Positions 2,266 to 32,051 of a DNA stretch of 48,024 bases are shown here, piece by piece. Below the pieces are notes generated by a model. The model was not told where the DNA came from. It saw nothing but the letters and a program-made list of their open reading frames with translations, and made no database searches. Numbering within the stretch: the first letter of the stretch is position 1; every line of letters starts with the position of its first letter. This DNA comes from Streptomyces tateyamensis (GTDB lineage: Bacteria > Actinomycetota > Actinomycetes > Streptomycetales > Streptomycetaceae), in contig NZ_PYBW01000029.1 of NCBI RefSeq assembly GCF_003205575.1, forward strand, positions 1-48,024. Reading direction: 5' to 3'. A program made the translations under genes and the position numbers.

Positions 2266-2312
2266 CCCGTTCAGTATCGCCGACCCGGCCGTTCATGATC
2301 TCATCGGCCCGG

Positions 2313-7736: not shown

Positions 7737-7766
7737 CGGAGCTCCCTTGGTGGAGGAGAGGGATCG

Positions 7767-8582: not shown

Positions 8583-8697
8583 GACGGTGGCTCCTCCCTC
8601 GCACTGCTGATATTTCATTATTTCTACGACCGTCATAAAACTGTCAATAGATGCTACGGTGACGGCGCCCCAGCTGCCGTCCCGACAGGAGCTCGCC
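8583..8697. promoter_or_regulatory. Divergent promoter region of the aryl-CoA island
   Basis: This short region is markedly AT-richer than its surroundings and separates the leftward operon from the rightward Rid/amidohydrolase genes. On the minus strand TTGACA (complement of 8642-8647) precedes TAGAAA with a short spacer. CCGTCA at 8630-8635 and TGACGG at 8660-8665 form an inverted repeat, and ACTGTCA lies between them. It is a plausible PaaX-type operator, unproven. Confidence 0.5.
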
Positions 8698-13334: not shown

Positions 13335-14743
13335 CAGAACCTCTGCGGGGGCTCGGACCGCGTGCGGTGCGGCGTGCTGGAGTGGAACCGGTCCTCGTTG
13401 TCGAGGAAGTAGCGGATGTCGGCGGTGGCCGCCTCGAAGGGGGAGCGCTCGCGGGCGCCGGGTGCCGGGGCGAGCAGGTCGGCGTGCCGGCGCAGTACGG
13501 CGGCGGAGAACGGCAGCGCACCGACGCCGGCGTAGCGGATGGCGCCGCAGGCGTCGCGCCGCGGGACGACGCGCGAGTGGGCGTGGACGCTGGCGCTGAA
13601 CGGGATGTCCAGGCGCCCGGCGGCGAAGGCGGCCTCGATCGCGGGCAGCAGCGCGGGCTCGTTCAGCACCGGGTCGACCAGTTCGGCGACCTCGCGCTCG
13701 ATCCAGTGCTGCTCCTCGGAGACCCGGTCCTCGTCGATCCGGACGAAGTCGAGCAGCTCGCAGGCGCCCAGCGCGGCAGTGCGGATGCCGTCGGCGTTCG
13801 CCTCGGCGTCGGGGATGCCGTACGCCTCCTGGTGGGTCTTGCTGATCACCTTGGTGGCGCCGCCGAGCCGGGCGAGCAGGCCGCCGTGCAGGATCAGCAG
13901 GTCGGCGTAGGAGCGGGTCCGCGGGAAGACGCCCATGAACTCGTGCAGCACCGGGTGGACTTCGATGCCCGGGTCGAGGTAGCGCGCGGCCAGGGTGCGC
14001 ACCGCGCGCAGCGCGGCCACGTCCTGGTGGATCTCGCCGCCCTGCGGGTAGGCGATGGACAGGCAGCGCACGCCCTCGCGGGCCGCGGCCACCGCCTCCA
14101 GCACGGTGACGGCGAGGCTGACCGAGGGCGGGACCAGCACCGCGGTGAGTGTGCCGAACAGCTCCCGGTCGATCAGCACGCCCTCGGCGGCGAGCACTCC
14201 GCACACCGCGTCGACCTGCTGCCAGGCGCGCAGCGAGTGGCCGAGCGGCACGTTCTTGGAGTACGGCAAGTTGTAGCCGATGCCGCCGCCCTCGTAGGAG
14301 GTCAGGCCGGCGGCCAGGGCGACGGCGAACAGCTCGCGTCCGTCGGGCGAGCCGTGCCGCACCTCCAGCGGGACGTCGACGGCGGCGGCCAGCTCCCGTC
14401 CGCGCTGCCAGCCGTGCGCGACCAGCGGGTAGCCGTTCAGGTCGGCGGGGTTGCGGGCGAGCAGTTCGGCGGCGGTGTCGAAGTGCCGCAGCCGGGTGTG
14501 CGAGTCGATGGTGACCGAGAGCACGCCCGGTCCGGCCGGCTCCAGGGCGCGCAGCAGCTCGACCATCTCCCGGTGGCCGCCGACGCCGCAGCGCGGCTGC
14601 ACCAGCGGACGGCCGCCGGCGGCGGCCTGGCGCAGCACCTCGGCCACCGGGCGGCGGGTGCGCAGGTGCGCCACGATCGCCTCCCAGTCGGGCAGTTCGG
14701 CGGCGATCCGGTCGTCGAGCTGCAGGCCGTGCAGTTCAGCCAT
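13334..14743 (-). CDS. glmE: Glutamate mutase (methylaspartate mutase) large subunit
   Basis: A 469-residue catalytic TIM-barrel subunit of adenosylcobalamin-dependent glutamate mutase, which interconverts L-glutamate and (2S,3S)-3-methylaspartate. Recognisable segments are LVQPRCGVGGHREMVELL, LSVTIDSHTRLRHFDTAAE, TSYEGGGIGYNLPYSKNVPL and SYADLLILHGGLLARLGGA, in the family order and at about the family length. The start overlaps the small-subunit gene by 8 nt, which fits a stoichiometric complex. In actinomycetes such pairs are known from pathways that make methylaspartate for lipopeptides or beta-amino acid starters for macrolactams. The symbol is the generic family name. Confidence 0.9.
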   Translation of the reverse strand: MAELHGLQLDDRIAAELPDWEAIVAHLRTRRPVAEVLRQAAAGGRPLVQPRCGVGGHREMVELLRALEPAGPGVLSVTIDSHTRLRHFDTAAELLARNPADLNGYPLVAHGWQRGRELAAAVDVPLEVRHGSPDGRELFAVALAAGLTSYEGGGIGYNLPYSKNVPLGHSLRAWQQVDAVCGVLAAEGVLIDRELFGTLTAVLVPPSVSLAVTVLEAVAAAREGVRCLSIAYPQGGEIHQDVAALRAVRTLAARYLDPGIEVHPVLHEFMGVFPRTRSYADLLILHGGLLARLGGATKVISKTHQEAYGIPDAEANADGIRTAALGACELLDFVRIDEDRVSEEQHWIEREVAELVDPVLNEPALLPAIEAAFAAGRLDIPFSASVHAHSRVVPRRDACGAIRYAGVGALPFSAAVLRRHADLLAPAPGARERSPFEAATADIRYFLDNEDRFHSSTPHRTRSEPPQRF

Positions 14744-15179
14744 GCTGCAGCTCGGCCGCCCGGGCGGCGTGCAGCATGTCGAGCAGCAGGACCAGGCCGC
14801 CCGCGTCCGCCAGCAGGTGGTCCACGCCCAGGTCGAGCAGCCGCTGCCGGTCGGTGCCGGCCTTGCGGCTGCCGACCGACAGATTGCCGCCGACGATCAC
14901 CGGGCAGCGCAGCCGGCCGGCGGCACGCAGCTCGGGCAGGGTGCGCAGGTCCTGGTGGGCGTGGCCGTTGAGGGATCCGATCAGCACCGCCTCGGCGTGC
15001 GGGTGGCGGTCGTGGGCGTCGGCGAAGTCGGACAGCGGGGTGCACACGCCGAGGTTGAGCACGGTGAAGCCGTGCGACTGCAGTTGCATGGTGATCAGCT
15101 GGTTGGCGACGGCGTGCGCGTCGCTCTCGGCCACGCCCAGGATGACCAGGCGGTCGGCCGGCCCGGCCGGCGTGTTCAT
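14736..15179 (-). CDS. glmS: Glutamate mutase small, B12-binding subunit
   Basis: A 147-residue Rossmann-like cobalamin-binding protein that presents adenosylcobalamin to the large subunit. The cobalt-ligating His is in SDAHAVAN (Asp20, His22). Further on are GSLNGHAHQDLR (the family S-L motif) and CPVIVGGNLSVGSRKAG (the GG dimethylbenzimidazole-tail region). The canonical DxHxxG is DxHxxA here (Ala25). I believe DAHAVAN also occurs in other actinobacterial homologues, so this is probably a subfamily variant rather than damage. It lies 52 bp from the desaturase gene upstream and overlaps the large-subunit gene. Confidence 0.88.
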   Translation of the reverse strand: MNTPAGPADRLVILGVAESDAHAVANQLITMQLQSHGFTVLNLGVCTPLSDFADAHDRHPHAEAVLIGSLNGHAHQDLRTLPELRAAGRLRCPVIVGGNLSVGSRKAGTDRQRLLDLGVDHLLADAGGLVLLLDMLHAARAAELQHG

Positions 15180-15231: not shown

Positions 15232-16449
15232 TCAGTCCTCGAAGGCCGAGAACAGCTCGCGGTGGTTGACCGCGGCCAGCCGGTCCGGGTCGTACTCGGC
15301 GGGGTCGGCGGCCCGCAGCGAGTCGAAGACCAGGTCGATCGCGGCTACCAGGCCCCAGACGTGGCGGTAGGGCGGCCAGCCCGGGTGGCCGAGCCGGTGG
15401 TCGTCCTCGCGGGCGTAGAGGTAGTTGGCCCAGTCGCGGCTCATCGGGGCCCGGTGGTGGAAGTCGTGCACCACGGTGTCGCCGGTGAGCACCAGGTAGC
15501 GGGCCGGGAAGTGCACCAGCAGCATCCGGGTCCACCAGCGGGCCCAGGCGAGCAGCCGATGCCCGGCGGGCAGGCCCGGCGGCGGGGCGGCCTCGCCGAG
15601 GAAGATCGCGTTGGTCAGGCCCGCGAAGTAGTCCCGCCCGCGCCGCACCGGCGCGTCGGGCGCGGGGAAGGTGTGCTTGACGCACAGTCGGAAGGTGTTG
15701 CTCACCTGGTACAGCACGCTCATCGGGACCACCCAGGCGACCAGCACGAAGAGCCACAGGTGCAGCCAGGTCGCCAGCGCCGCGACGGCGGCCAGCGCCA
15801 CCAGGGTGCCGGCGCGCCAGGCCGGAGCGGCGGCGTGGAAGTAGGAGCGGATCCGGGCCGTCAGGAAGCGGGCGTGGAAGAGCGGTGAGACGGTCCGGCC
15901 GAGCATGCGGCGCCACATCTGACGACGGCTCATGCCGGGGCGCAGGCCGAGGCTGACCAGGAACGCCTGCACGGTGGGGTCGCGCAGCGTCATGTGGTGC
16001 AGCGCGTGGTGGTCCGCGACGTGCTCGGCGCTGTAGCGGCCGAAGTCCTGGATCATCAGCAGCGCCGCGATGGCCCGGCCGAGCAGCACGTCGTGCCGCT
16101 TGTGGCCCCACATGTTGAGGTGGGCGCACTGGTGGTAGACCATCATCCGCAGGTTCCGGGCGCTGTGCAGGGTCATCGCCCAGCCGGCCGGGACCAGCAG
16201 CAGCCACCAGCCGCCGGCCGCCAGGGCCAGCGCCCCGGCGGCCAGGCCGGCGGTCATGGACGCCAGGGCGTTGAGCAGGTGCCGGGTCGGGGTGTACGCC
16301 GTCCGGTGCCGGCCGTCGAGCGGGCGGCCGGTCAGCAGCGTCAGCGGCCGGTCGAACAGCCGCGGCAGGCGGCCCATCGACGCGCGGACGGGGTCGTCCG
16401 CCTGCCGGCCAGCGGCCGGCGCGGACGGGCGGTGCACCTCGGATCTCAC
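15232..16449 (-). CDS. Membrane fatty-acid-desaturase-family di-iron enzyme
   Basis: A 405-residue membrane protein with the three histidine boxes of the desaturase/hydroxylase superfamily: HQCAH (106-110), HVADHHALHH (143-152) and HDFHH (328-332). Hydrophobic segments lie around residues 58-95 and 215-250. Members use O2 and a di-iron site to desaturate or hydroxylate acyl chains or small amine/acid substrates. Placed between the decarboxylase and glutamate mutase genes, it is more likely to tailor the cluster product than membrane lipid; that is inference. The GTG at 16449 has a weak GAGAG upstream; an internal ATG at 16377 is a possible alternative start. Confidence 0.85.
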   Translation of the reverse strand: MRSEVHRPSAPAAGRQADDPVRASMGRLPRLFDRPLTLLTGRPLDGRHRTAYTPTRHLLNALASMTAGLAAGALALAAGGWWLLLVPAGWAMTLHSARNLRMMVYHQCAHLNMWGHKRHDVLLGRAIAALLMIQDFGRYSAEHVADHHALHHMTLRDPTVQAFLVSLGLRPGMSRRQMWRRMLGRTVSPLFHARFLTARIRSYFHAAAPAWRAGTLVALAAVAALATWLHLWLFVLVAWVVPMSVLYQVSNTFRLCVKHTFPAPDAPVRRGRDYFAGLTNAIFLGEAAPPPGLPAGHRLLAWARWWTRMLLVHFPARYLVLTGDTVVHDFHHRAPMSRDWANYLYAREDDHRLGHPGWPPYRHVWGLVAAIDLVFDSLRAADPAEYDPDRLAAVNHRELFSAFED

Positions 16450-16491: not shown

Positions 16492-18012
16492 TCAGACCGC
16501 TACGGCCGCGGCCTCCTGCTCCGCGGCGAGCGCGAGCAGGTCGTCGACGAGCCGGTCCAGCTGCTCCGGGGCGGTCTGCGGGTTGAGCAGCATCAGCTTG
16601 AGGAAGACCCGGCTGCTGCCGTCGGGCTGCGTGATGTGGGTGCGGGCGAGCAGGGCCCGGCCGTCCTCCATCACCCGGCGGCGCAGCTTGCCGTTGAAGG
16701 CGTCGGCGTCCAGGCCGTGGCCGGGCAGGTAGCGGAAGAGCACGGCGGTGAGCGGGGGTTCGGTGCCCAGTTCGAGCCGGGGCTCGGCGGCGATCCGGGC
16801 GGCCGCGTGCCGGGCCAGGTCATGGCAGGTGTCGACCATCTGCGCCACCGCGTCGCGGCCCAGGGTGCGCATGGAAACGGCGATCTTCAGCGCGTCGGCC
16901 CGCCGGGTGGTCTGCAGCGAGGTGTTCTGCGAGCCGATGTAGCCGGCGCAGGTGTCGTCGTCGGCGCTCAGGCAGGTGGTGGGCTGCAGGCCGAAGGAGT
17001 TCATGGTCTCGGCGCGGCGCACCAGCAGGGCCGCGGAGGAGGCCGGGGTCCAGCCGAACTTGTGCAGGTCCATGGTGACCGAGTCGGCCTCGGCCAGGCC
17101 GTCCAGCATCGGGCGCAGCCGCGGGGAGAAGAGCGCGCCGGCCCCGTAGGCGGCATCGGCGTGCAGCCACAGGCCGTGCGCACGGGCGATCGCGGCCAGT
17201 TCCGGCAGCGGGTCGACGATGCCCAGGTCGGTGGAGCCGGCGACGGCGACCAGCGCGACGGGCACCTCGTGCGCGGGCAGTCCGGCCAGGATCCGCTCGG
17301 CCTCCTTCGGGATCATCCGGCCGTGCTCGTCGATCGGGACGGTGCGGATGTTCGCCTCACCGATGCCGAGCAGGCGCACCGCGCGCTCGATCGAGAAGTG
17401 CACGCCCTGCGGGGCCAGCACCACGGGCTGCACGCCCAGGTTCAGCAGGCCCTCCTGGAAGGCGAGCCGGCCGGTCTTCGCGGCGAGCACGGTGTCGCGG
17501 GCCATGGTCATGGCCATCAGGTTGGAGACGCTGCCGCCGGAGGTGAGGGTGCCGCCCGCCTCGGCGGGGTCGTAGCCGACCAGCTCGGCGAGCTGGGCGA
17601 TCACCCAGCGGTCCAGCTCCAGCGCGAACGGGCCGCTCTCCCAGGCGTGCAGCGACTGGTTGAGGACGGCGCCGACCAGCTCGGCGGCGGCGGCCACGTC
17701 GGTGGGCGGCGGCTGCATCCGGGCCACCGCGGCCGGGTGGGTGATGTCCACCGACCACTGGGCGTAGGGCCGCACCAGCTCGGCCAGCACCTGGGCGGGC
17801 TCGCTCGCCCGCTCGGGCAGCAGCGGGGCGGTGAGCGCCGCCTCGGCCGCGGCTCGAGCCGCCGCCGGGCCACCGGGGGCGACCGGGCCGGTGCGGGCGG
17901 CGGCGGCCTCCTGCAGGATGTCCAGGGCGGTGTTGACCAGGCTGCGCACGCTCTCCAGGCCCTCGGCGGTGCCGGCGGGCTGGTAGAGCTGACCGGGCGC
18001 GGTGCTGCTCAC
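16492..18012 (-). CDS. PLP-dependent decarboxylase (group II)
   Basis: A 506-residue group II PLP decarboxylase (aspartate/diaminobutyrate/glutamate type). Key segments are TSGGSVSNLMAM, LWLHADAAYGAG (His284 and Asp286 stacking and pairing with PLP) and the Schiff-base lysine in DLHKFGW (Lys318). Near the C-terminus is RVFLKLMLLNPQT. A GTG at 18012 with GAGGAGAA upstream is the start. With glutamate mutase in the same operon the natural proposal is decarboxylation of 3-methylaspartate, free or carrier-bound, to a 3-amino-2-methylpropionate unit, as in macrolactam starter pathways (VinO type). Aspartate, glutamate or diaminobutyrate remain alternatives. Confidence 0.9.
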   Translation of the reverse strand: MSSTAPGQLYQPAGTAEGLESVRSLVNTALDILQEAAAARTGPVAPGGPAAARAAAEAALTAPLLPERASEPAQVLAELVRPYAQWSVDITHPAAVARMQPPPTDVAAAAELVGAVLNQSLHAWESGPFALELDRWVIAQLAELVGYDPAEAGGTLTSGGSVSNLMAMTMARDTVLAAKTGRLAFQEGLLNLGVQPVVLAPQGVHFSIERAVRLLGIGEANIRTVPIDEHGRMIPKEAERILAGLPAHEVPVALVAVAGSTDLGIVDPLPELAAIARAHGLWLHADAAYGAGALFSPRLRPMLDGLAEADSVTMDLHKFGWTPASSAALLVRRAETMNSFGLQPTTCLSADDDTCAGYIGSQNTSLQTTRRADALKIAVSMRTLGRDAVAQMVDTCHDLARHAAARIAAEPRLELGTEPPLTAVLFRYLPGHGLDADAFNGKLRRRVMEDGRALLARTHITQPDGSSRVFLKLMLLNPQTAPEQLDRLVDDLLALAAEQEAAAVAV

Positions 18013-18106
18013 GTGCGGTTCTCCTCGTGGGTGGGGTACGGGTGCCGGCCGCGCGGGGCGGCCGGCAGCGGGGGCTGACGGTCCGGCAGGGCTGACCGGC
18101 GGGGCG

Positions 18107-19405
18107 TCAGGACGGCGTGGGCACGGCGGTGCCGGTCTCGGCGGCATCGCGCTGGTGGGGCAGGTCGGTCGGGAAGTCCCGCAGCCGCACCACCGGCGAC
18201 AGGGCCACCCAGAGCAGGGCGAACAGGAAGGTCCCCGCGGTGATCCAGAGCGTGGGGCGCAGCCCCAGCGTGTCGCCGAGCCGGCCGCCGATCAGCGCGC
18301 CCAGCGGCAGCGGTCCCCAGGCGATGAACCGGCAGCCGGCGTTGACCCGGCCCAGCAGCTGCGGCGGGGTGATCACCTGACGCAGGCTCACCGCGTGGAT
18401 GGTCGCCATGGTCGAGCCCAGCCCGCACAGGCCGAAGGCGGTGACGTACAGCGCGTAGGAGAGCGCGCCCCGACCCGGGGCGAGCGGGATCAGCAGCGGC
18501 GCGCAGCAGCAGAGCAGCAGCTCGGCGAGCACCGCCCGGCCCAGACCGAGGCGCTCCTTGAGCCGCGCGGCGCCGACCGCACCCAGCAGCGAGCCGACCG
18601 CGCCCACGCCCAGCACCAGGCCGATGGTGCCCGGCCTCATGCCGAGCCGGGACGCGTACAGCACGAAGACGGTCTGCAGCGACATCCAGCACAGGTTGTA
18701 GGTGCCGGCCTGCAGGGCGATCGCCCGGATCGAGGCGTTGCCGAGCACCACCTTCAGGCCCTCGGCGATGCTGCGGACGGTGGAGACGCGCTCGGCGGGC
18801 TGCTCCGGGGCCGGCTCGCGGCGCCGGATCGTGCTGAGCGTGCCCACCGAGACCAGGTAGGAGGCGCAGTTGACCAGCAGGGCGAGCGGCGCGGTGAGCC
18901 AGCCGATCAGCAGGCCGGCCAGGCCGGGGCCGCCGATCTGCGCGACCGAGTTGCTGACGGAGAGTTTGCTGTTGCCCTCCACCAGCTGCTCGGTGTTGAT
19001 CAGCGAGGGCAGGTAGGACTGGTAGGAGACGTCGAAGACCACGGTCAGCACGCCGATGGCGAGCGCGGCCAGGTACAGGTACCAGACGGTCAGCGCGCCC
19101 ATCGCCGCGCACAGCGGGACGGTGCCCACCAGCAGCGCGCGCCCCAGGTTGGCACCGATCATCAGCGGCCTGCGGCGCCGCCGGTCGGCCCAGACCCCGA
19201 TGAACAGGGTCAGGCCCAGGAACGGCGCGTAGCTGGCGGCGTTCAGCAGGCCGAGCTGGGTGGAGTTGGCGTGCAGCTGGTACACCGCGGCCAGCGGCAG
19301 CGCCAGCTGGGTGACCTGGGCGCCGAGCTGCGAGACGCTCTCTCCCGCCCAGAGCCGCAGGAAGTCGCGGTCCTGCCACAGCCCGCCGGGGGAGGGCCGC
19401 TTCAC
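18107..19405 (-). CDS. MFS transporter, probable product exporter
   Basis: A 432-residue major-facilitator protein with about 12 hydrophobic segments. The loop 2-3 motif is GVWADRRRRRPLMIGAN, and the first helix begins FLRLWAGESVSQLGAQV, as in the enterobactin-exporter-like/macrolide-efflux (DHA3) group. It starts with a GTG at 19405 that overlaps the stop of the double ATP-grasp gene by GTGA, so it belongs to the same operon. It most likely exports the cluster product and gives self-resistance. It is 94 bp upstream of the decarboxylase gene. Confidence 0.9.
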   Translation of the reverse strand: MKRPSPGGLWQDRDFLRLWAGESVSQLGAQVTQLALPLAAVYQLHANSTQLGLLNAASYAPFLGLTLFIGVWADRRRRRPLMIGANLGRALLVGTVPLCAAMGALTVWYLYLAALAIGVLTVVFDVSYQSYLPSLINTEQLVEGNSKLSVSNSVAQIGGPGLAGLLIGWLTAPLALLVNCASYLVSVGTLSTIRRREPAPEQPAERVSTVRSIAEGLKVVLGNASIRAIALQAGTYNLCWMSLQTVFVLYASRLGMRPGTIGLVLGVGAVGSLLGAVGAARLKERLGLGRAVLAELLLCCCAPLLIPLAPGRGALSYALYVTAFGLCGLGSTMATIHAVSLRQVITPPQLLGRVNAGCRFIAWGPLPLGALIGGRLGDTLGLRPTLWITAGTFLFALLWVALSPVVRLRDFPTDLPHQRDAAETGTAVPTPS

Positions 19406-22023
19406 GCCGGGCTCCCGGCGGGGTCCTCGACGTGGAAGCAGCAGCCGATCTGCGCACCGTTGGACATGCTGACGATGCCGACCTGCGCGTCCGGGGTGCC
19501 GCGTACCAGCATCCCGGCGTAGGCCGAGCCGACCATCAGCACGCCGTAGGCGACGACCATCTGCTCGAAGCCCTGCCCGTCCTCGCGCACGAACCGCTCG
19601 GCGACCGGCAGTACCCGCTCCTGCACCACGTAGGGCCCGTCCACCGCGCCGCGCAGGTGGGCCTCCCACTCGGCCTGACCGACCGACCAGCCGGGGACCA
19701 CACCCACCCCGCCGTACAGCAGGGTCGGCTTGAGGGCGAGGCGGTCCTTGTTGGCCAGGGCGAACGGCAGCAGGTCGATGCGCTCGCCGGCCCGCTCGAC
19801 CCGCTCCTCGCGCAGGAACCGGGTCCACGGCAGGATCCGGTCCACCAGTTCCTGCTCGCCGGTGCCGAAGGCCGCCCGGTTCCGCTCGTCGCTGAGCATC
19901 GCCAGGCTGCCCTTGTTGCCGTACAGCTCGCAGTCCAGGCCGGCGAACAGGAAGGTCTCGCCGCGCTCGACGGCGTCCAGCAGGGGGTCGACCAGGTCGC
20001 GGCTGCGCTGCTCGTCGGCCATCTCGCCGGGCAGGAAGATCCGGTAGACCACGTCGACCTTGCGGCCATGGACGTGCGGCACCCCGTCGCGGTACTCGAA
20101 CTCGCCGAGGTGGCAGACCACGGTGTCGAAGCCGTTCCGCAGCCAGTCCGGGACCACGAAGTCCAGCCAGGGCTTGGTCTTGACGTAGCCGTCCGGCCAC
20201 TCGGTCAGGGCCAGCACCGGGCGCTCGGGCAGCTCGTAACCGGCCGCGGCGGCCTCGCCGCGCAGCACCTCGGCGATCCGCCCGATCGGGTCGGGGTGCA
20301 CCAGGCGCTCGGCGGCCGCGAACTCGCGGAACACCTCGTTCTCGCGGACCGTGCGGGCGAACTCGCCCATCTGCCAGCCGCCCAGCGAACTGCCGGTGTT
20401 GAGCTCCATCAGCTTGAAGCCGGCCGGCTCGCGGTACATGTCGGCACGCGACATCGCGGGCATCCGCAGGCCGGCGCCGCGCATCACCAGGTCGATCTGG
20501 GTGGGCGTCATGCCGACCGCCTTGGCGAAGGCGCGCCGGTCGCCGGCGAAGAGCCGCTCCGGGATCGTGGTGAGCAGCTCGAACAGGCCGTTGAGGTCGG
20601 CCTCCAGCCGGCGGCGGTCGGCGGCGTCCAGCAGCACCGGCCGGTTGAGCGACTGACCGCCGCCGGCGCCGTAGCGGATCCAGTCGTTGCGCACCCCGGG
20701 GACGGTCATCCGCTCCAGGCCGCGCTCGGCGGCCAGGTAGCGGCGGGTGACCGGGTTCTCCAGCAGCGCGCCGAGCCCGTCCAGCGGGGAGCCGGCCAGC
20801 ACCGGGCGGATCTCGGCCTCGGCGGCGTCCAGCGCGGCGGTGCAGCCTGACGGATCGTCGGCGACCGCCAGCACGGCGGCGGTGCGCGGGGTGAGCGCCT
20901 TGGGGGGCAGCAGCAGCTCGGCGCCCGGCTCGGCCAGCGCGACCACCTCGGCGATGCCGGGCAGCTCGGCGGAGCCGCCCAGGTCGAGCGAGGCCAGCGT
21001 GCCGTCGTGCGGCGGGTAGAGGAAACGGATCTCCGCCCAGCGCTGGTCGGGGGCAGGGGCCGCGGGTCGCTCGCCGAAGGCCAGCGCGGCGCCGGCCAGC
21101 GGCAGGTCGATCCCGGTGGCGAGCGCGCCGACCCGCGGGATCAGGTCGCCGCCCAGGCGCCCGTTGAGCTCGATCAGCCGCGGCCCGTCCGCGGTGAGCC
21201 GCAGCTCCGTGTGGGTGGTGCCCTGCGCGATGCCCAGCGCCCGGTGGGCGGCCTTGACCAGCTCCTCGACCGGGCCTGCCCAGGGCTCCTGGCGCCAGGG
21301 GCCGACCAGGTGGCCGACCTCCTCGCAGGCCGGATCGAAGCCCAGGCGCTTGCGGGCGACGAAGACCGGCTCGGCCTCGCCCGCCACCACCAGGCTGTCG
21401 ATGCTGATCTCGGGGCCGGCCAGGAACTCCTCGACGAGCACGCCGTCGGCCGCGTCCAGCGGTCCCATCACGGTGCCGGCGGCCAACCGGTAGGCGTCGG
21501 CGAACCGCTGCGCCTCGCGGACCACGGTGACGCCCAGGCTGCCGGCCAGGCCGCGCGGCTTGAGCACCAGCGGGAAGCCGATCTCGGCAGCCGCCTGCTC
21601 GGCCTCGGCCGCGCTGTGCACCAGCCGGTGGCGCACGCCGGGCAGCCCGGCGGCGTCCAGCAGGGTGCGGGTGGTGAACTTGTCCCGGCAGGCCCGCGCG
21701 GCGGCGGCCGACATGTGGGGCAGGCCGAGCTGCTCGGCGACCTCGGCGGTGGCGATCAGCGACAGCTCGTCCCAGGTGTAGAGCCCGGTGCGCGGGTGGC
21801 CGGCGGCAGCCGACTCGGCGAGCAGTTCCTCGACGGTGGCGCGCAGCGCGACCGGGTCGGTGGTGTCGGCGGTGCGGTAGGACCCGACGTACTCCTGCTC
21901 CCAGGTCAGCGGGGCGGCGGAGACGAGCGCGAGGTCGTAGGCGCCGGCCAGCGAGGCCATCGCGTACTCGCGGTAGGTCCGCAGCCTGCTGCCCACCAGT
22001 ATCAGTCGGTTCCTGTCGCCCAT
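19402..22023 (-). CDS. Bimodular ATP-grasp ligase
   Basis: An 873-residue protein with two ATP-grasp units. Unit 1 (about 1-410) is canonical: FPLVLKPRGLAGSLGVTVV (nucleotide-binding Lys and glycine loop), DGVLVEEFLAGPEISID and the metal-binding PRLIELNGRLGGDLIPR. Unit 2 (about 430-870) appears circularly permuted: the metal-binding FKLMELNTGSSLGGW comes first (near 565), then ALKPTLLYGGVGVVPG (near 755) and YVVQERV. Such enzymes activate carboxylates as acyl phosphates and couple them to amines, thiols or carrier proteins. Two sites in one chain suggest two successive ligations. The ATG at 22023 follows GGAGAG. Substrates are unknown. Confidence 0.85.
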   Translation of the reverse strand: MGDRNRLILVGSRLRTYREYAMASLAGAYDLALVSAAPLTWEQEYVGSYRTADTTDPVALRATVEELLAESAAAGHPRTGLYTWDELSLIATAEVAEQLGLPHMSAAAARACRDKFTTRTLLDAAGLPGVRHRLVHSAAEAEQAAAEIGFPLVLKPRGLAGSLGVTVVREAQRFADAYRLAAGTVMGPLDAADGVLVEEFLAGPEISIDSLVVAGEAEPVFVARKRLGFDPACEEVGHLVGPWRQEPWAGPVEELVKAAHRALGIAQGTTHTELRLTADGPRLIELNGRLGGDLIPRVGALATGIDLPLAGAALAFGERPAAPAPDQRWAEIRFLYPPHDGTLASLDLGGSAELPGIAEVVALAEPGAELLLPPKALTPRTAAVLAVADDPSGCTAALDAAEAEIRPVLAGSPLDGLGALLENPVTRRYLAAERGLERMTVPGVRNDWIRYGAGGGQSLNRPVLLDAADRRRLEADLNGLFELLTTIPERLFAGDRRAFAKAVGMTPTQIDLVMRGAGLRMPAMSRADMYREPAGFKLMELNTGSSLGGWQMGEFARTVRENEVFREFAAAERLVHPDPIGRIAEVLRGEAAAAGYELPERPVLALTEWPDGYVKTKPWLDFVVPDWLRNGFDTVVCHLGEFEYRDGVPHVHGRKVDVVYRIFLPGEMADEQRSRDLVDPLLDAVERGETFLFAGLDCELYGNKGSLAMLSDERNRAAFGTGEQELVDRILPWTRFLREERVERAGERIDLLPFALANKDRLALKPTLLYGGVGVVPGWSVGQAEWEAHLRGAVDGPYVVQERVLPVAERFVREDGQGFEQMVVAYGVLMVGSAYAGMLVRGTPDAQVGIVSMSNGAQIGCCFHVEDPAGSPA

Positions 22024-22111: not shown

Positions 22112-23341
22112 CTAGGGGGTGGTCGCCGCGCAGCGCACCCGGACCGCGCCGGCGGTGCGCAGGATCGCGGCCTCCACCTCGTGGCTGGACTCGCCGCGGA
22201 ACCGGAACCGGCCGGCCACGTGTTCGTAGCCGCCCACCGCGGGGATCGCCGTGCCGGGCGGCGGCAGGTGGCCGGCGTAGGGGCCGAGCCCACCGGCCGG
22301 CGCGGCAGCCGCCTCCAGCACCGTGCAGGGCGGCGGGACGGGCAGCGGCAGCAGCAGCCAGCCCGCGGTGCGCCCCGCCGGGATGCGCGGGGCGGTCGGG
22401 GTGCGGCCGAGCTGGATGTCCACGGCGGCGGCCATCAGGTCGACGCCGTGCACCTCGCGCCAGACGAACGGGATCTCCGCGCCCCCGACCCGGGCGCCGG
22501 CTTCCAGGAAGGTGAGCCGCGGCGCGCCGTTGCCGTCGACGCCGGCGAACGCCTCCAGGTGGAACACCCAGGGCTGCCCGGCACCCAGCGCCGCACCTAC
22601 CTGGGCGGTGAACTCCTCTACCGCGGAGAGAAGTTCGGGATCGTCGAGCTCGACCGAGCCGAGGAAGACGCCGGCACCGAACTCGCGGCAGCTGTTGACG
22701 TAGCGCGAGGCCCGCCACGGACCCAGCCGCTCCCCGGTCCACAGCCCGTCGATGTGCAGCACCGGCTCGGGCACGAAGCTCTCCACCAGGAACGGCTCCT
22801 GGCCGAGGCCGGCCGCCGCCGACAGGTCCTCCGGGCCGTGCAGCACGGCGACGCCCCGGCTGGCGGTGCCGCGCCGCGGCTTGACCACCACCGGCCAGCC
22901 GTGCGCGGCGGCGAAGGCCCGCACGGCGCCGGCGTCCGGCGCGTCCGCGTAGGCGGGCACCCGCACCCCGCCCGCCTCGGCGGCGACCACCATCGCCAGC
23001 TTGTCGCGGAACCGCTCGAGGTCCGCGCCGCGCTGGCCCGGCAGGTCGAGCTCCTCACGCAGCCGGGCGGCGGTGTCCAGGTCGCCCTCGTTCAGCGCCA
23101 CCAGCCGGCGCACCGGCCCCAGGCGGTCGGCGAGTCCGGCGATCGCCGCGCGGACCTCGGCCAGCCGGTCGGTCGCGGACACCACGGCGACCGCGGCGGC
23201 CGCCTCGGGCGCCGAAGCCCGGCTCAGTTCCGTGGTCACGTAACTGACCTGCTGGGCCCGGTGGTCGAGGTAGTCGGCGTAGCGGGCGTACTCGTCGCGC
23301 CAGCGGTGCAGCACCACGACGTGCTCACGGACCGCGCTCAC
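22112..23341 (-). CDS. ATP-grasp ligase
   Basis: A 409-residue single ATP-grasp enzyme of the biotin-carboxylase-like/carboxylate-amine ligase group: WPVVVKPRRGTASRGVAVL (ATP-binding Lys and loop), EPFLVESFVPEPVLHIDGLW, and LTFLEAGARVGGAEIPF (metal ligands) near 290-310. It carries the third ATP-grasp active site of the operon. Its GTG start at 23341 overlaps the hypF-like stop by GTGA, tying carbamoyl chemistry and amide-ligation chemistry to one transcript. An 88-bp gap separates it from the bimodular ligase gene. Probable role: amide or peptide bond formation in the cluster product. Confidence 0.87.
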   Translation of the reverse strand: MSAVREHVVVLHRWRDEYARYADYLDHRAQQVSYVTTELSRASAPEAAAAVAVVSATDRLAEVRAAIAGLADRLGPVRRLVALNEGDLDTAARLREELDLPGQRGADLERFRDKLAMVVAAEAGGVRVPAYADAPDAGAVRAFAAAHGWPVVVKPRRGTASRGVAVLHGPEDLSAAAGLGQEPFLVESFVPEPVLHIDGLWTGERLGPWRASRYVNSCREFGAGVFLGSVELDDPELLSAVEEFTAQVGAALGAGQPWVFHLEAFAGVDGNGAPRLTFLEAGARVGGAEIPFVWREVHGVDLMAAAVDIQLGRTPTAPRIPAGRTAGWLLLPLPVPPPCTVLEAAAAPAGGLGPYAGHLPPPGTAIPAVGGYEHVAGRFRFRGESSHEVEAAILRTAGAVRVRCAATTP

Positions 23342-25710
23342 CGCTGTCCCTCGCGCAGCCGGGCGTCGGCCACCATGATCTGGCCGAGCGCGATGCCGCC
23401 GTCGTTGGTCGGCACCTGCTGCTGGCAGTACGCCGCGAAGCCCGCCCTGCGCAGCTCGACCAGGCAGTTGACCAGCAGGAACTCGTTGAGGAACACCCCG
23501 CCGGAGAGCACGACCTGACGGGTCGCCGACTCACTCTCCCGCAGGATCGCCAGGCACTGGGTCACCACCAGGTCGACCACCGCGCCGTGGAACCGCCGAC
23601 TGAGCTCGGCCGGCGGCAGGTCGGCCGCGAGGTCCGCAGCCAGCGCCCGGACCACCGGGCGCGGGTCGAGCTCGGTCCCGCCCGGCTGCCCGCTCGCCGC
23701 GAAACGGTACCGCTCCTCGGGCGCGGCCATCGTCAGGTCGCGGCCCAGCAGGCCCTCCAGCTCGATCGGGCCCTGCGCCTCGTACTCGGCGCGGGTGGTG
23801 ACCGCGAGCAGCGCGGCGACGCCGTCGAAGAGCCGGCCCATGCTGGAGGCGAGCGGGGAGTTGATGCCGCGCTGCGCCATGGTGGCGAACACGTGGCGCT
23901 GCTGCTCGTCCAGCTGGGCCAGCACCGGGAAGGCGGCCACCGCCGCCTGTGCACCGCCCAGGGCGTCCAGGGCCAGCGCGAAGCCGGTGCGGATGGGCTC
24001 CTTGACCGCGCGGTCGCCGCCGAGCAGCGGCACCGTGCGCAGGTGCGCCACCCGCCGCACCGCGCGGTAGTCGCCGAGCAAAAACTCCCCGCCCCACGTG
24101 GTGCCGTCCTCGCCGTAGCCGGCACCGTCGAAGACCACACCGATGGTGGTGCCCTCCAGCCGGTGCTCGGCCATGCAGGAGGCCATGTGCGCGTGGTGGT
24201 GCTGGACCTGGACCACCTCGCCGAACGCGCCGCCCTGCTCCTTGAGCGCGAACCGGGTGGCCCTGAACTGCGGGTGCAGGTCGACCGCGGCGTGCCGGGG
24301 CGTCAGGCTGTGCAGCGTGGCGAGGTGACGGACCGTCTCCTTGTGCGACTCGAAGGTCTCGTCGTTCTTGAGGTCGCCGATGTGCTGGCTGAGGTAGACC
24401 CGGCTGCCGCCGCTGAGTGCGACGGTGGTCTTCAGCTCCGCGCCGTAGGCGACCAGCGGCGCCAGCTCGCGGCCCACCTCGACCGGGTAGGGCGCGTAGC
24501 CGCGGGCCCGACGCAGGAACCCCACCACCGGCTCGGCGAGTTCGGGGTGTTCGGAGTAGCGCACCAGCGAGTCGTCGACCCGCACCTCGATGTCCCGGTC
24601 GTTGGACAGGATCAGGTCGGCGACCTCGAAGAGCTGCGCCAGCGCGTCCTCGTTGCGGTGCACGATCGGGTAGCCGGAGAGGTTGCCGCTGGTCATCACC
24701 AGCATGTCCAGTCCCTCGTGGTCCACCAGGAGGTGGTGCTGGGGCGCCGAGGGCAGCATCACGCCGAGGTTGGGGTTGCGCGGCGCGATCTCCTCGGGCA
24801 GCGCGCCGGCCAGCTTGCGCAGCAGCACGATCGGGCGGGCCGTGGACTCGAGCAACCCGGCCTCGGCCGAGCGGACTTCGGCGATCCGCCGGACCGTCGC
24901 CAGGTCCCGGGCCAGCACCGCGAACGGCTTGGAGTCGCGCCGCTTGCGCTTGCGCAGCAGCGCCACCGCCGCGGCGTCCCGGGCATTGACGGCCAGGTGG
25001 AAGCCCCCGACGCTCTTGACCGCCACGATCCGGCCGGCCGCGAGCGCCTCGGCAGCCAGCGCGAGCGCCTGCCCGCCCTCGGCCGACTCACCCGAGGGGC
25101 CGTTCAGCAGCAGCCGCGGCCCGCACTGCGGGCAGGCGTTGGGCTGCGCGTGGTAGCGCCGGTCCAGCGGGTCGCGGTACTCCGCCTCGCACAGCGCGCA
25201 CATGGTGAACGCGGCCATGGTGGTGGTCGCCCGGTCGTACGGCAGGGCCCGCACGATGGAGTACCGCGGGCCGCAGTTGGTGCAGTTGATGAAGGGGTAG
25301 CGGTACCGCCGGTCGGCCGGGTCGCGCAGTTCGGCCAGGCAGTCGGCGCACACGTGGGCGTCGGCGGGTACCACGGTGACCTTGCGGCCGGTGTGCGCGC
25401 TCTCGCGGATCTCGAAGCCGGTCGCCGCCCACTCGCCCGCCCCGCCCTGCCCCGCCTGCGCCTCCCGCTCCACCCGGACCTGGTCGACCCGGGCCTGCGG
25501 CGGTGCCTGGGTGCGCAGTTGCGCGGTGAAGCGGTGCACGGCGTCGGCCGGTCCGCACACCTCGGTGAGCACGCCCTCAGGGTCGTTGAGCACCCAGCCC
25601 GACAGCTCGTGGGCGAGCGCGAGCTTGTAGACGAAGGGGCGGTAGCCCACGCCCTGCACCACCCCGGTGACCCGGATCAGCCGCCCCAGCGGCGCCTCGC
25701 CCTGCTTCAT
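23338..25710 (-). CDS. hypF: HypF-type carbamoyltransferase, full length
   Basis: A 790-residue complete HypF architecture. The acylphosphatase domain has GVVQGVGYRPF (Arg24) and WVLNDPEG (Asn42). Two Cys4 zinc fingers follow (C121/C124/C143/C146 and C171/C174/C193/C196), then a YrdC-like domain (near 205-390) and a Kae1-like C-terminal domain with QHHHAHMASCMAEH and GVVFDGAGYGEDG. In NiFe-hydrogenase maturation HypF makes carbamoyl-AMP from carbamoyl phosphate and ATP and carbamoylates the HypE C-terminal Cys. No hypA, B, C, D or hydrogenase gene is visible here. Its neighbours are HypE and biosynthetic genes, which suggests recruitment to small-molecule synthesis. The start at 25710 was chosen because the acylphosphatase domain begins there. 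Confidence 0.93.
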   Translation of the reverse strand: MKQGEAPLGRLIRVTGVVQGVGYRPFVYKLALAHELSGWVLNDPEGVLTEVCGPADAVHRFTAQLRTQAPPQARVDQVRVEREAQAGQGGAGEWAATGFEIRESAHTGRKVTVVPADAHVCADCLAELRDPADRRYRYPFINCTNCGPRYSIVRALPYDRATTTMAAFTMCALCEAEYRDPLDRRYHAQPNACPQCGPRLLLNGPSGESAEGGQALALAAEALAAGRIVAVKSVGGFHLAVNARDAAAVALLRKRKRRDSKPFAVLARDLATVRRIAEVRSAEAGLLESTARPIVLLRKLAGALPEEIAPRNPNLGVMLPSAPQHHLLVDHEGLDMLVMTSGNLSGYPIVHRNEDALAQLFEVADLILSNDRDIEVRVDDSLVRYSEHPELAEPVVGFLRRARGYAPYPVEVGRELAPLVAYGAELKTTVALSGGSRVYLSQHIGDLKNDETFESHKETVRHLATLHSLTPRHAAVDLHPQFRATRFALKEQGGAFGEVVQVQHHHAHMASCMAEHRLEGTTIGVVFDGAGYGEDGTTWGGEFLLGDYRAVRRVAHLRTVPLLGGDRAVKEPIRTGFALALDALGGAQAAVAAFPVLAQLDEQQRHVFATMAQRGINSPLASSMGRLFDGVAALLAVTTRAEYEAQGPIELEGLLGRDLTMAAPEERYRFAASGQPGGTELDPRPVVRALAADLAADLPPAELSRRFHGAVVDLVVTQCLAILRESESATRQVVLSGGVFLNEFLLVNCLVELRRAGFAAYCQQQVPTNDGGIALGQIMVADARLREGQR

Positions 25711-25801
25711 CGTCCGTTGCCGTCCGTCCTCGTCCGTTGCCCGTCCGCGGGCTGTTGCCCCCGGCGGCCCCACCCGCGCCTGCGCGGTCCTGCTCCCTGG
25801 C

Positions 25802-26827
25802 TCAGCAGAGCCGGGGCAGCTCGGCGCCCTGCAACTCGTCCACCACGGCGTCCCGGCCGTCCGCGCCGCGCATCAGCACCAGCGGCTCGGCCGCCTCGGT
25901 GACCTCGCCGATCACCACGGCGCCGGTGCCGTAGCGGTGCGCCCGCAGCGCGGCGAGCACCTCCTGTTCGGCCTGCGGGGCGACGAACAGGCACACGCAG
26001 CCCTCGTTGGCGGCATGGATCGCGTTGACGCCCAGCATGTCGGTGGCCATCGCGGTCTCGAACTGGATCGGCAGCGCCTCCCGCTCGATCCGGATGGTGT
26101 GCCCGCTGGAGGCCGCGTACTCGTGCAGCACGGCCGCCAGGCCGCCGCGGGTGACGTCGCGCACCGAGTGCACCCGGCCCTCGCCGACGGTGGCGAGCAG
26201 CTCGTCCAGCATGCCGTTCAGCGGCGCGCAGTCGCTCAGCACGCGCTGCTCGAAGCCCAGGCCCTCGCGGATCGAGAGCAGGTGGACGGTGTGGTTGCCG
26301 ATGGGGCCGCTGAGGATCACCCGGTCGCCGGGGCGCACGTCGCGCATCCGCATCGGGGTGCGCTCGAAGACGCCCACCCCGGCGGTGTTGAGGTAGATCT
26401 GGTCGGCCTCGCCCTTGCGGACCACCTTGGTGTCACCGCAGACGATCTTGACCCCGGCCTCCCTCGCGGTCTCCCGGATCGAGGTCAGCACCTGGACCAG
26501 CCGGGCGATCGGCAGCCCGGTCTCCAGGATCATGCCGAGGGTGAGGTAGAGCGGCCGGGCACCGACCACCGCGAGGTCGTTGACGGTGCCGCAGACCGCG
26601 ATCTTGCCGATGTCGCCGTTGCCGAAGAAAGGCGGGTCCACCACGAACGAGTCGGTGGTCATCGCGATCTGCCCGGAGGAGATGGGCAGCATCGCGCTGT
26701 CCTCCATCTCACCGATGTACACGTCGCCGAGCGTTTCGACGATCAGGGAGATCAGCTCGTGGCTGAGCTGCGCCCCGCTGCCGTGGTCGAGCTCGACTAC
26801 GCCGAGGTCGGTCGCCTGGCTTGTCAT
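25802..26827 (-). CDS. hypE: HypE-type carbamoyl dehydratase with C-terminal Cys
   Basis: A 341-residue PurM/SelD-fold protein: TTDSFVVDPPFFGNGDIGKI, NDLAVVGARPLYLTLG, KIVCGDTKVV and RDVTRGGLAAVLHEYA are the ATP-binding signatures. It ends PRLC, matching the HypE PRIC-type tail whose terminal Cys carries the carbamoyl group, later dehydrated with ATP to a thiocyanate. The functional Cys is present (Cys341), so the carbamoyl-to-cyano reaction should be possible with the adjacent HypF. In hydrogenase assembly the cyano group then passes to HypCD-bound iron; no such acceptor is encoded here. ATG at 26827 after GAAGGA; 91 bp separate it from the hypF start. Confidence 0.93.
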   Translation of the reverse strand: MTSQATDLGVVELDHGSGAQLSHELISLIVETLGDVYIGEMEDSAMLPISSGQIAMTTDSFVVDPPFFGNGDIGKIAVCGTVNDLAVVGARPLYLTLGMILETGLPIARLVQVLTSIRETAREAGVKIVCGDTKVVRKGEADQIYLNTAGVGVFERTPMRMRDVRPGDRVILSGPIGNHTVHLLSIREGLGFEQRVLSDCAPLNGMLDELLATVGEGRVHSVRDVTRGGLAAVLHEYAASSGHTIRIEREALPIQFETAMATDMLGVNAIHAANEGCVCLFVAPQAEQEVLAALRAHRYGTGAVVIGEVTEAAEPLVLMRGADGRDAVVDELQGAELPRLC

Positions 26828-27006: not shown

Positions 27007-27597
27007 TCAGGGGAGGATCTTCACGACCTTGCGCGGCAGCTCGCCCTCGGCGTCGAGGACGTCGAAGATCTCCTTGGAGTCGGCCACGGTGGCGCAGTAG
27101 CCGGCGAGCCACTCCAGGGAGCGGTCGCGGTCCGCGGGGTTGCCGGAGACGACGCAGTCCGAGGGCACCCAGACGTTGTAGCCGCGGAAGAACGCGTCGG
27201 CGGCGGTGGTCTGCACGCAGATCTGCGTCTGCAGGCCGGTGACCAGCACGGTGTCGACACCGGCGGCCTGCAGGCGGTCGTGCAGCTCGGTCTCGTAGAA
27301 GCCGCTGTCCTTGTTCTTCTCGACGGTCTCGTCCCCGTCGGCGAGGAAGTCGGCCAGGATGGCCGCGCCCTGCGAGCCGCGCTGCAGCGGCAGCGTGCCG
27401 TCCAAGTCGCGCTCGACGTTGGGGTCGTCGGGCAGGTTCACCAGCTGCAGGTGGTAGATCCCATGGCCGCGGCGGCGCATCTCGTCGAGGAAGGCCGAGA
27501 AGCGCGGCTGCGCCTCGGCCATCGCCGCGGTCCGCTCGGGAGTCTTGTGGACGACGTCGGCCTGCAGGTCGTTGGTGAGAACGGCGATCTTGCCCAT
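27007..27597 (-). CDS. Isochorismatase/nicotinamidase-fold cysteine hydrolase
   Basis: A 196-residue cysteine hydrolase. The catalytic triad fits the family: Asp10 in TNDLQADVV, a Lys in VEKNKDSGF (Lys94 or Lys96) and Cys127 in VTGLQTQICVQTTAADAF with a preceding cis-peptide-type turn. Relatives hydrolyse isochorismate, nicotinamide, N-carbamoylsarcosine, biuret and related amides. It is the first gene of the 27597-to-10885 cluster; linkage to hypE is by direction, across 179 bp. An N-carbamoyl- or amide-hydrolysing role would fit next to a carbamoyl-transfer system, but this is speculative. ATG at 27597 after AAGGACC; in-frame codons upstream show no domain. Confidence 0.88.
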   Translation of the reverse strand: MGKIAVLTNDLQADVVHKTPERTAAMAEAQPRFSAFLDEMRRRGHGIYHLQLVNLPDDPNVERDLDGTLPLQRGSQGAAILADFLADGDETVEKNKDSGFYETELHDRLQAAGVDTVLVTGLQTQICVQTTAADAFFRGYNVWVPSDCVVSGNPADRDRSLEWLAGYCATVADSKEIFDVLDAEGELPRKVVKILP

Positions 27598-29210: not shown

Positions 29211-29345
29211 CGGTTACTCGCTGACCACCGAGCGCGCAGGATCAGCCGCTGCCGCGAGGTTCGACGGCCGCGAGGAGTCCTGGAGCAGTGTCGATCAGTG
29301 GAACCCGATGCGGCAGGGCCGGGCGCAGGATCGGTTGTCGTCTCC

Positions 29346-30871: not shown

Positions 30872-30877
30872 CGGCGG

Positions 30878-31954: not shown

Positions 31955-32051
31955 TCCGACATGCTAGGTGCCGGGGGCCGCGATCCCGGGCACACCCGCG
32001 GCCCCGGCGTGGCTGACGGACCGTCAGCGGCCCGGCTCCTACCATCGAGCG
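31955..32051. promoter_or_regulatory. Divergent leaderless promoters with a perfect palindrome
   Basis: GCTGACGG-A-CCGTCAGC at 32012-32028 is a perfect 8-bp inverted repeat with a 1-nt centre. To its left, TAGCAT (complement of 31961-31966) lies 6 nt before the PKS ATG. To its right, TACCAT (32040-32045) lies 6 nt before the UbiA GTG. The palindrome overlaps where the UbiA -35 region would be, a sensible repressor site. Confidence 0.65.

What the first reader, a model, noticed from the sequence alone, without database searches (positions are those of the whole stretch)
23338..26827. HypF-HypE pair embedded in a biosynthetic operon without hydrogenase genes
Full-length HypF (acylphosphatase, two Cys4 fingers, YrdC, Kae1 domains) and HypE with an intact PRLC terminal cysteine are encoded together. 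Yet no hypA/B/C/D or NiFe-hydrogenase gene is in the window. The hypF-like stop overlaps the start of an ATP-grasp ligase gene (GTGA), and the same strand goes on to glutamate mutase, a decarboxylase and an exporter. Established chemistry: HypF carbamoylates the HypE terminal Cys and HypE dehydrates it to a thiocyanate. Inference: here the cyano (or carbamoyl) group is transferred to a small molecule, giving a nitrile, cyanamide, thiocyanate or carbamoyl natural product, a recruitment I do not know to be described.
Basis: partly seen in the sequence, partly recalled or inferred. Interest (0 to 1): 0.93.

Follow-up and report, generated by a model that had tools for sequence, protein, structure and literature searches.

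The report
Hydrogenase-free cyano-group transfer cassette
A bacterium in whose genome no hydrogenase gene was detected carries the two proteins that normally make cyanide for hydrogenases, set in a small-molecule operon next to a third, hydrolase-like protein that accompanies this branch of the pair in very different bacteria; together they likely attach a cyano group to an amino-acid-derived molecule, which would be an undescribed use of this chemistry.

Summary
In detail: intact HypF (23338-25710, -) and HypE (25802-26827, -, ending PRLC) sit in a probable operon with two ATP-grasp ligases, an exporter, a decarboxylase, glutamate mutase and an aminotransferase. The finding missed the key partner: an isochorismatase-fold "cysteine hydrolase" (CysH, 27007-27597) just upstream. 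CysH is at 64 of 67 held loci of this HypE branch (Actinomycetota, Paraburkholderia, Photobacterium, Sorangium, Enterobacteriaceae and others) and at 0 of 36 hydrogenase-type HypE loci. HypA, HypC, HypD and the NiFe large subunit were not found in the window's genome; 30 of 53 cassette genomes lack HypD. HypE and HypF branch apart from hydrogenase maturases, with a few HypF exceptions; several genomes carry one of each. Recruitment away from hydrogenases is therefore well supported. Predicted mechanism: HypF and HypE make a protein-bound cyano group; CysH stands in for HypC/HypD and passes it to an amine, probably of a diaminobutyrate-type acid, giving a cyanamide or cyclic guanidine. No product was shown. 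A 2020 paper noted hypE/hypF with an ATP-grasp gene in a short passage; the passages read give no mechanism and no CysH link.

The parts
27007..27597 (-). CysH: isochorismatase-fold cysteine hydrolase, 196 aa, residues D10, K94, C127; the third cassette gene
   Evidence: PF00857; found at 64 of 67 PRLC-HypE loci and 0 of 36 PRIC-HypE loci; C127 in 57 of 57 aligned copies of 150 aa or more; AlphaFold pLDDT 94.3; nearest solved folds include triuret and biuret hydrolases and N-carbamoylsarcosine amidase
25802..26827 (-). HypE, 341 aa, C-terminal PRLC (C341 = predicted carbamoyl/cyano carrier)
   Evidence: TIGR02124 over cut-off; PDB 3vti/2i6r relatives; branch apart from hydrogenase HypE
23338..25710 (-). 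HypF, 790 aa, all domains (alternative upstream GTG start at 25773)
   Evidence: TIGR00143 over cut-off; Pfam domains; only HypF in the genome
22112..23341 (-). ATP-grasp ligase 1, 409 aa; GTG start overlaps hypF stop by 4 bases
   Evidence: weak PF02222 (24.8 bits, cut-off 27) and PRK02186-type matches; overlap
19402..22023 (-). ATP-grasp ligase 2, 873 aa; N-terminal half L-amino-acid-ligase type, C-terminal half unassigned
   Evidence: PF13535, PF18603; in 14 of 67 cassette loci
18107..19405 (-). MFS exporter, 432 aa, GTG start overlapping the previous stop
   Evidence: ORF and overlap; relatives in 14 of 67 cassette loci; named MFS by reading, the window copy was not scanned against Pfam
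16492..18147 (-). PLP decarboxylase (true start may be further in, near 18012)
   Evidence: PF00282; best NCBIfam L-2,4-diaminobutyrate decarboxylase 274 bits, below its cut-off of 900
15232..16449 (-). fatty-acid-desaturase-fold protein, GntB-like
   Evidence: PF00487; NF041365 GntB 40.7 bits, far below cut-off 380
14736..15179 (-). GlmS, B12-binding subunit of glutamate mutase
   Evidence: PF02310; TIGR01501 78.9 bits, below cut-off 135.8
13334..14743 (-). GlmE, glutamate mutase catalytic subunit
   Evidence: PF06368 380.9 bits; TIGR01503 339.5 bits, below cut-off 390.1
11946..13334 (-). class-III aminotransferase, last gene of the conserved family-A operon
   Evidence: PF00202; directly after GlmE in 6 of 6 fetched relatives L121-L126, 64-87% identical

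Best explanation
The window carries a CysH-HypE-HypF cassette that likely makes a cyano group from carbamoyl phosphate on the last cysteine of HypE and is predicted to pass it, by way of CysH, to an amino-acid-derived small molecule instead of to hydrogenase iron. Steps: (1) HypF carbamoylates HypE C341 (chemistry established for hydrogenase HypF/HypE; here inferred from conserved sequence). (2) HypE dehydrates it to a thiocyanate (same basis). (3) CysH replaces HypC/HypD as partner: its C127 takes or activates the cyano carbon and delivers it to an amine (inferred). In hydrogenases the transfer is proposed to be reductive and HypD supplies the redox thiols; a transfer of the CN unit to an amine needs no electrons, which fits the loss of HypD. 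(4) On a diamino acid of the 2,4-diaminobutyrate kind the resulting cyanamide can close to a six-membered cyclic guanidine (inferred from the neighbouring diaminobutyrate transaminases at 14 of 67 loci). (5) In the window, ATP-grasp ligases would join the unit into a short peptide and the MFS protein would export it (inferred).
For: CysH at 64 of 67 PRLC-HypE loci and 0 of 36 PRIC-HypE loci. HypE tree: 36 hydrogenase-type HypE on one side of a branch, 62 cassette HypE plus one degenerate copy on the other, SH-aLRT 100. The labels have an outside check: 19 stretches were chosen by their HypD gene and the HypE in each of the 19 ends PRIC. HypF tree: 62 cassette HypF within a 66-row clade, support 99. 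Residues kept in both HypE groups include N83, D84, K134, D224, E275 and C341; cassette-specific positions include H182 and M264 62/62, C277 59/62, L340 62/62. HypD absent in 30 of 53 cassette genomes. Diaminobutyrate transaminase near the cassette in separate lineages (14 of 67 loci), over an NCBIfam cut-off in the five copies scanned, with an aspartate-kinase-like gene beside it in L055. A carbamoyl phosphate synthetase large-subunit gene lies in the clusters of Saccharothrix L036 and of G045/L127. CysH fold near triuret/biuret hydrolases and N-carbamoylsarcosine amidase, enzymes of small urea-like ligands. In five Nocardia CysH the D10 and K94 of the hydrolase triad are gone and C127 stays, which fits a transfer role better than hydrolysis.
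Against: No product, activity or protein contact was shown. Diaminobutyrate genes are at only 14 of 67 loci; the NRPS, sugar, enteric and most Nocardia settings showed none in the held stretch, so the acceptor may differ or be something else. The window's own aminotransferase is not of the diaminobutyrate type and its decarboxylase is far below the diaminobutyrate model's cut-off. CysH keeps a full hydrolase triad in 52 of 57 copies, so it could hydrolyse something instead. In L057 the only CysH lies about 9.5 kb beyond HypF and is cut by the locus end. The HypF clade also holds three Rhizobiales HypF with no HypE in the held locus and one from a locus with a hydrogenase-type HypE (L067), and hydrogenase HypF is not one clade. 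The group names rest on the HypE tail (PRLC/PRIC), which is part of the alignment behind the HypE tree. Naming K134 and E275 as catalytic is recalled.
Confidence: 0.45

Rival explanations
1. Carbamoyl, not cyano: HypE serves as carrier of the carbamoyl group and CysH, from an N-carbamoyl hydrolase family, transfers or trims it, giving a urea or carbamate.
For: CysH's nearest kin include enzymes of N-carbamoyl compounds; the first HypF step gives a carbamoyl group in any case.
Against: HypE keeps the residues shared with the hydrogenase dehydratases, including K134 and E275. As recalled, known antibiotic carbamoyltransferases of the HypF kind (TobZ, GdmN) work without a HypE.
Confidence: 0.2
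2. Cyanide release: a second cysteine next to the conserved HypE glutamate (C277, cassette HypE only) attacks the thiocyanate sulfur and frees cyanide, which is then added to an electrophile as a nitrile or used as a poison; CysH protects or trims.
For: C277 in 59 of 62 cassette HypE, K 28, R 6 and T 2 of 36 in hydrogenase HypE. A nitrilase-fold gene in one NRPS-type cluster, L054.
Against: Three cassette HypE (L006, L094, L116) have N at 277. C277's place relative to C341 was not measured. It gives CysH no clear core role.
Confidence: 0.12
3. A second hydrogenase-maturation set: the pair still serves a hydrogenase, as a redundant copy.
For: Paraburkholderia carries cassette and hydrogenase operon side by side, both down in a nifA mutant; L067 has a HypF of this clade beside a hydrogenase-type HypE.
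Against: HypA, HypC, HypD and large subunit not found in the window's genome; no HypD in 30 of 53 cassette genomes.
Confidence: 0.04
4. Catabolic or detoxifying role: the cassette handles an imported urea- or cyanide-like compound.
For: Rhizobium pRLG203 has ABC transporter genes with a substrate-binding protein next to CysH-HypE-HypF; CysH resembles catabolic amidohydrolases.
Against: HypF and HypE consume ATP to build, not degrade; elsewhere exporter-type genes, ATP-grasp ligases or NRPS genes are the neighbours.
Confidence: 0.08

Closest known systems
[NiFe]-hydrogenase HypE/HypF cyanide-ligand pathway
   Same: Same two protein families over NCBIfam cut-offs, same conserved residues, C-terminal cysteine carrier, carbamoyl phosphate as the presumed source.
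   Different: No HypC or HypD and no hydrogenase found in this genome, PRLC instead of PRIC tail, extra Cys at 277 in 59 of 62 copies, near-constant CysH partner, biosynthetic surroundings.
Isochorismatase-like N-carbamoyl amidohydrolases (TrtA, BiuH, N-carbamoylsarcosine amidase)
   Same: Fold, and Asp-Lys-Cys triad in 52 of 57 copies.
   Different: Genetically tied to HypE/HypF; own invariant residues (for example D97 and D147 in 57 of 57, C168 in 56 of 57); triad partly lost in five Nocardia copies with the Cys kept.
HypF-like antibiotic carbamoyltransferases (TobZ, GdmN, NovN)
   Same: HypF-type YrdC and Kae1-like domains used in natural-product clusters (recalled; the GdmN paper PMC9633730 seen in a search listing only).
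   Different: As recalled, those lack HypE and CysH partners and give O-carbamates; here the full HypF with acylphosphatase and zinc fingers is kept.
hypE/hypF in a candidate RiPP cluster with an ATP-grasp ligase (decRiPPter, PMC7794033)
   Same: hypE, hypF and an ATP-grasp gene without other hyp genes; a novel function was suggested.
   Different: A short passage; no CysH, wider distribution or mechanism in the passages read.

Membership tests
HypE (carbamoyl dehydratase) | full-length profile match over curated cut-off | tested here: met
   TIGR02124 427.3 against 251.6 bits
HypE (carbamoyl dehydratase) | C-terminal cysteine in PR-x-C | tested here: met
   PRLC in the window and at 67 loci; hydrogenase-type copies PRIC
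HypE (carbamoyl dehydratase) | ATP-dependent dehydration to thiocyanate | not testable with these tools
   residues conserved; needs biochemistry
HypF (carbamoyl-HypE ligase) | profile over cut-off and all domains | tested here: met
   TIGR00143 714.8 against 466.1 bits; five Pfam families
[NiFe]-hydrogenase maturation system | HypC and HypD scaffold in the genome | tested here: not met
   PF01924 and PF01455: 0 matches, controls ring
[NiFe]-hydrogenase maturation system | a hydrogenase large subunit to mature | tested here: not met
   PF00374: 0 matches, controls ring
Isochorismatase-like cysteine hydrolase | fold | tested here: met
   PF00857; Foldseek to PDB, probability 1.00
Isochorismatase-like cysteine hydrolase | Asp-Lys-Cys triad | tested here: met
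   D10, K94, C127 in the window; D10 and K94 in 52 of 57 copies, C127 in 57 of 57; naming them as the triad is recalled
Isochorismatase-like cysteine hydrolase | amide hydrolysis activity | not testable with these tools
   no assay
HypF-like antibiotic carbamoyltransferase (TobZ type) | acts without HypE on a hydroxyl acceptor | not tested
   HypE is present here; acceptor unknown

The most novel reading that the evidence does not exclude
A free-standing biological cyanation module: HypF and HypE turn carbamoyl phosphate into an enzyme-bound electrophilic cyano group and CysH places it on amines, giving cyanamides and, on diamino acids, cyclic guanidines. It would be an arginine-independent route to guanidines, moved as a three-gene cassette between Actinomycetota, Proteobacteria and Myxococcota and plugged into peptide, NRPS and amino-sugar clusters.
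Probability: 0.3. Interest if true: 0.93.

Novelty: new variant of a known kind. Interest (0 to 1): 0.8.

Why it matters
HypE and HypF are the textbook source of hydrogenase cyanide and are named in genome annotation as hydrogenase maturation proteins. A branch without HypC and HypD, tied to a new partner and carried even in 14 of 5426 complete E. coli genomes, means that this label is probably wrong for them and that bacteria probably own a dedicated way to put carbon-nitrogen groups from carbamoyl phosphate on small molecules. It makes a concrete three-protein reconstitution possible and points to a set of clusters without a known product.

Tried and rejected
Redundant hydrogenase maturation: lowered by the HypA, HypC, HypD and large-subunit searches and by the trees. 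In one search, 26 of 53 genomes pass the PF00374 cut-off; three of these (G087, G095, G110) show only a 63-67-residue N-terminal match and have no HypD; the other 23 are the ones with HypD.

NRPS specificity: adenylation-domain residues read by pattern looked threonine-like in five family-C loci (code recalled), which did not point to a cyano acceptor; not used. Literature: searches for hypE/hypF with natural-product, nitrile, thiocyanate, isochorismatase, ATP-grasp and NRPS terms and for cyanamide or cyclic-guanidine terms gave PMC7794033 as the only prior notice that I saw. Of the listed papers I opened only PMC7794033, PMC8305402, PMC12134894 and PMC4506123, passages only; the library lacks most subscription journals and all bioRxiv preprints. 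One search opened an unrelated paper (PMC3668322) through a DOI that I misremembered. HypE was partly in the wrong frame and was redone. The search scored at most 8 candidates per genome, so its 2 of 394 is a lower bound. Rows dropped before trees: HypE copies under 300 aa, L120 and the duplicate L001; for HypF, copies under 650 aa, L001, and 18 of the 24 genus copies L007-L030. The CysH residue counts leave out copies under 150 aa. My gene caller picked some false frames in GC-rich loci; gene names were used only where domain or homology searches agree, or are marked as read.
Full report
What is there. On the minus strand of the window runs a probable operon: CysH 27007-27597, HypE 25802-26827, HypF 23338-25710, ATP-grasp 22112-23341, ATP-grasp (873 aa) 19402-22023, MFS 18107-19405, PLP decarboxylase 16492-18147, desaturase-fold protein 15232-16449, GlmS 14736-15179, GlmE 13334-14743, class-III aminotransferase 11946-13334. 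HypF and HypE pass the NCBIfam equivalog cut-offs for hypF and hypE. The HypF stop and the next GTG start overlap by four bases. CysH, PF00857, lies 179 bases upstream of HypE and was not in the finding.

Hydrogenase genes. The genome holding the window (7.46 Mb, 439 contigs, 99.98% complete) has one HypF and no match for HypD, the NiFe large subunit, HypC or HypA, while control genomes ring. HypB was not tested. Across genomes that carry the cassette, HypD was found over its cut-off in 24 of 54 rows; two rows are the same genome (G020 and G082, identical places), so 23 of 53 have it and 30 of 53 do not; L037 was not held. PF00374 passes its cut-off in 26 of 53: the 23 with HypD and three with only a short N-terminal match.

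The cassette. Scans of genome contigs and of the genus and of plasmids and E. coli, with further fetches, gave loci with HypE ending PRLC or PRIC. Of 67 PRLC loci (some are repeat fetches of one place; 62 distinct HypE sequences), 64 hold CysH. The three without are L006 (a short stretch whose longer fetch L128 has CysH), L063 (the contig begins about 495 bases before HypE) and L077. CysH is usually directly before HypE; it is divergent in the S. clavuligerus type, after HypF in L073, and about 9.5 kb beyond HypF in L057. Of 36 PRIC loci, none holds CysH. The hosts include Streptomyces, Kitasatospora, Streptacidiphilus, Saccharothrix, Nocardia, Nonomuraea, Nocardiopsis, Actinosynnema, Paraburkholderia, Photobacterium, Sorangium, Citrobacter, Buttiauxella, Escherichia and Rhizobium. 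In E. coli the three genes match in 14 of 5426 complete genomes at about 67% DNA identity to the Escherichia sp. query; in the one inspected they lie near tRNA-Asn with broken integrase genes, in the order LysR regulator / cysteine hydrolase, hypE, hypF, HAD phosphatase, MFS. The same run is on a Citrobacter and a Salmonella plasmid.

Trees. HypE: 99 rows; the 36 PRIC copies are one side of a branch (SH-aLRT 100); the other side holds the 62 PRLC copies and one copy ending PRLA (L117). An AU test of the 62 held together without L117 is not rejected (p 0.27). As an outside check of the labels, 19 stretches were taken because they hold HypD, and the HypE in each of the 19 ends PRIC. HypF: 113 rows; a clade of 66 (support 99) holds the 62 cassette HypF plus L075, L076, L080 (Rhizobiales, no HypE in the locus) and L067 (hydrogenase-type HypE nearby); the hydrogenase HypF are not one clade. 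Genomes G060, G051, G045 and G020 carry one HypE of each kind.

Residues. Residues kept in both HypE groups (97% or more) include N83, D84, K134, D224, E275 and C341. Cassette-specific positions include D14 62/62, H182 62/62 (A in 32 of 36 hydrogenase copies), M260 and M264 62/62, L340 62/62 (I in 36 of 36) and C277 59/62 (K 28, R 6, T 2 of 36), directly after E275-G276; the three exceptions have N. In CysH, C127, D97, D134 and D147 are in 57 of 57 copies, C168 in 56, and D10 and K94 in 52 of 57. Five Nocardia copies read TSGLQ and QERSKDSGF, that is without the Asp and Lys of the triad but with the Cys. The CysH model has mean pLDDT 94.3; its nearest solved folds are triuret hydrolase, an unnamed isochorismatase-family protein, N-carbamoylsarcosine amidase and, a little further down, biuret hydrolase.

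Surroundings. Family A (the window, L031-L035, L037, L066) has the two ATP-grasps, MFS, decarboxylase, desaturase-fold protein, GlmS and GlmE; the aminotransferase follows in 6 of 6 fetched relatives. Family B (L040-L043, L050, L065, L078) has a haem-oxygenase-fold oxidase and an aminotransferase and, where the stretch reaches, an M20 hydrolase, the ATP-grasps and an MFS. Family C has NRPS genes and an SHMT/transaldolase-like enzyme (12 of 67 loci). Others: Nocardia with a transporter-like gene (read), enterics, Saccharothrix L036 and G045/L127 with a sugar aminotransferase, an epimerase and a carbamoyl phosphate synthetase large subunit, the aminotransferase also in L045, S. clavuligerus type with an agmatinase-like ureohydrolase (below cut-off), ATP-grasp and DUF3865. 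Diaminobutyrate transaminases are near the cassette in 14 of 67 loci; the same search with the L071 query finds 0 of 36 hydrogenase loci, while the L040 query finds five at 33-38% identity and the L055 query one. NCBIfam places those of L040, L071, L047 and L055 over the TIGR00709 cut-off and that of P. phymatum over the EctB cut-off. L055 adds an aspartate-kinase-like gene. The window itself has a decarboxylase closest to diaminobutyrate decarboxylase, well below that model's cut-off.

Expression seen elsewhere. In P. phymatum nodules, the cassette genes fall in a nifA mutant: cysteine hydrolase Bphy_7270 -6.29, hypE Bphy_7271 -5.17, hypF Bphy_7272 -7.47, ectB -7.58 log2 (PMC8305402, passages and part of Table 1 read). 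That paper treats hyp genes as hydrogenase-related in the passages seen.

Mechanism. Established for hydrogenases (PMC12134894, passages read): HypF carbamoylates the last cysteine of HypE, HypE dehydrates it to thiocyanate, and a reductive transfer to iron on HypC/HypD is proposed, with HypD thiols. An infrared study assigns the HypE signal at 2105-2118 cm-1 to isothiocyanate instead (PMC4506123, passages read). Here the first two enzymes are kept with their conserved residues and the scaffold is gone. CysH is the only near-constant replacement seen. I infer that CysH's cysteine receives or activates the cyano carbon and delivers it to an amine; a diamino acid would close to a cyclic guanidine. 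The acceptor is the least certain step.

Prior notice. The decRiPPter paper (PMC7794033, passages read) reports hypE and hypF homologues in a cluster with an ATP-grasp ligase and no other hyp genes and suggests a novel function. The other searches named under Tried and rejected showed nothing more in the held library.

Noticed in passing
L117:11962-12981 (Streptomyces sp. NBC_01276 plasmid): A HypE-like protein in a polyketide-type cluster beside crotonyl-CoA carboxylase that ends PRLA: the carrier cysteine is lost and no HypF was found in the stretch.
   Followed up: partly
L067, L075, L076, L080: HypF of the cassette clade outside the cassette: one Burkholderiales copy beside a hydrogenase-type HypE, three Rhizobiales copies with no HypE in the held stretch.
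   Followed up: partly
window 19402-20793 (C-terminal half of the 873-aa ATP-grasp): Residues from about 411 to 873 match no Pfam family at E up to 0.001; possibly a second, rearranged ligase domain.
   Followed up: no
window 1384-8729: Genes reading as a PaaX-type regulator, flavin monooxygenase fusion, acyl-CoA ligase, thioesterase and fumarylacetoacetase-like protein: an aromatic acyl-CoA degradation cluster next door, by reading only.
   Followed up: no
window 29242-32909: Genes reading as a type III polyketide synthase, methyltransferase, geranylgeranyl-reductase-like flavoprotein and UbiA-type prenyltransferase: a separate small cluster, by reading only.
   Followed up: no
L114 (Rhizobium leguminosarum pRLG203): CysH and HypE separated from HypF by a DMT transporter gene and preceded by ABC transporter genes with a substrate-binding protein: the one setting that looks like uptake.
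   Followed up: no
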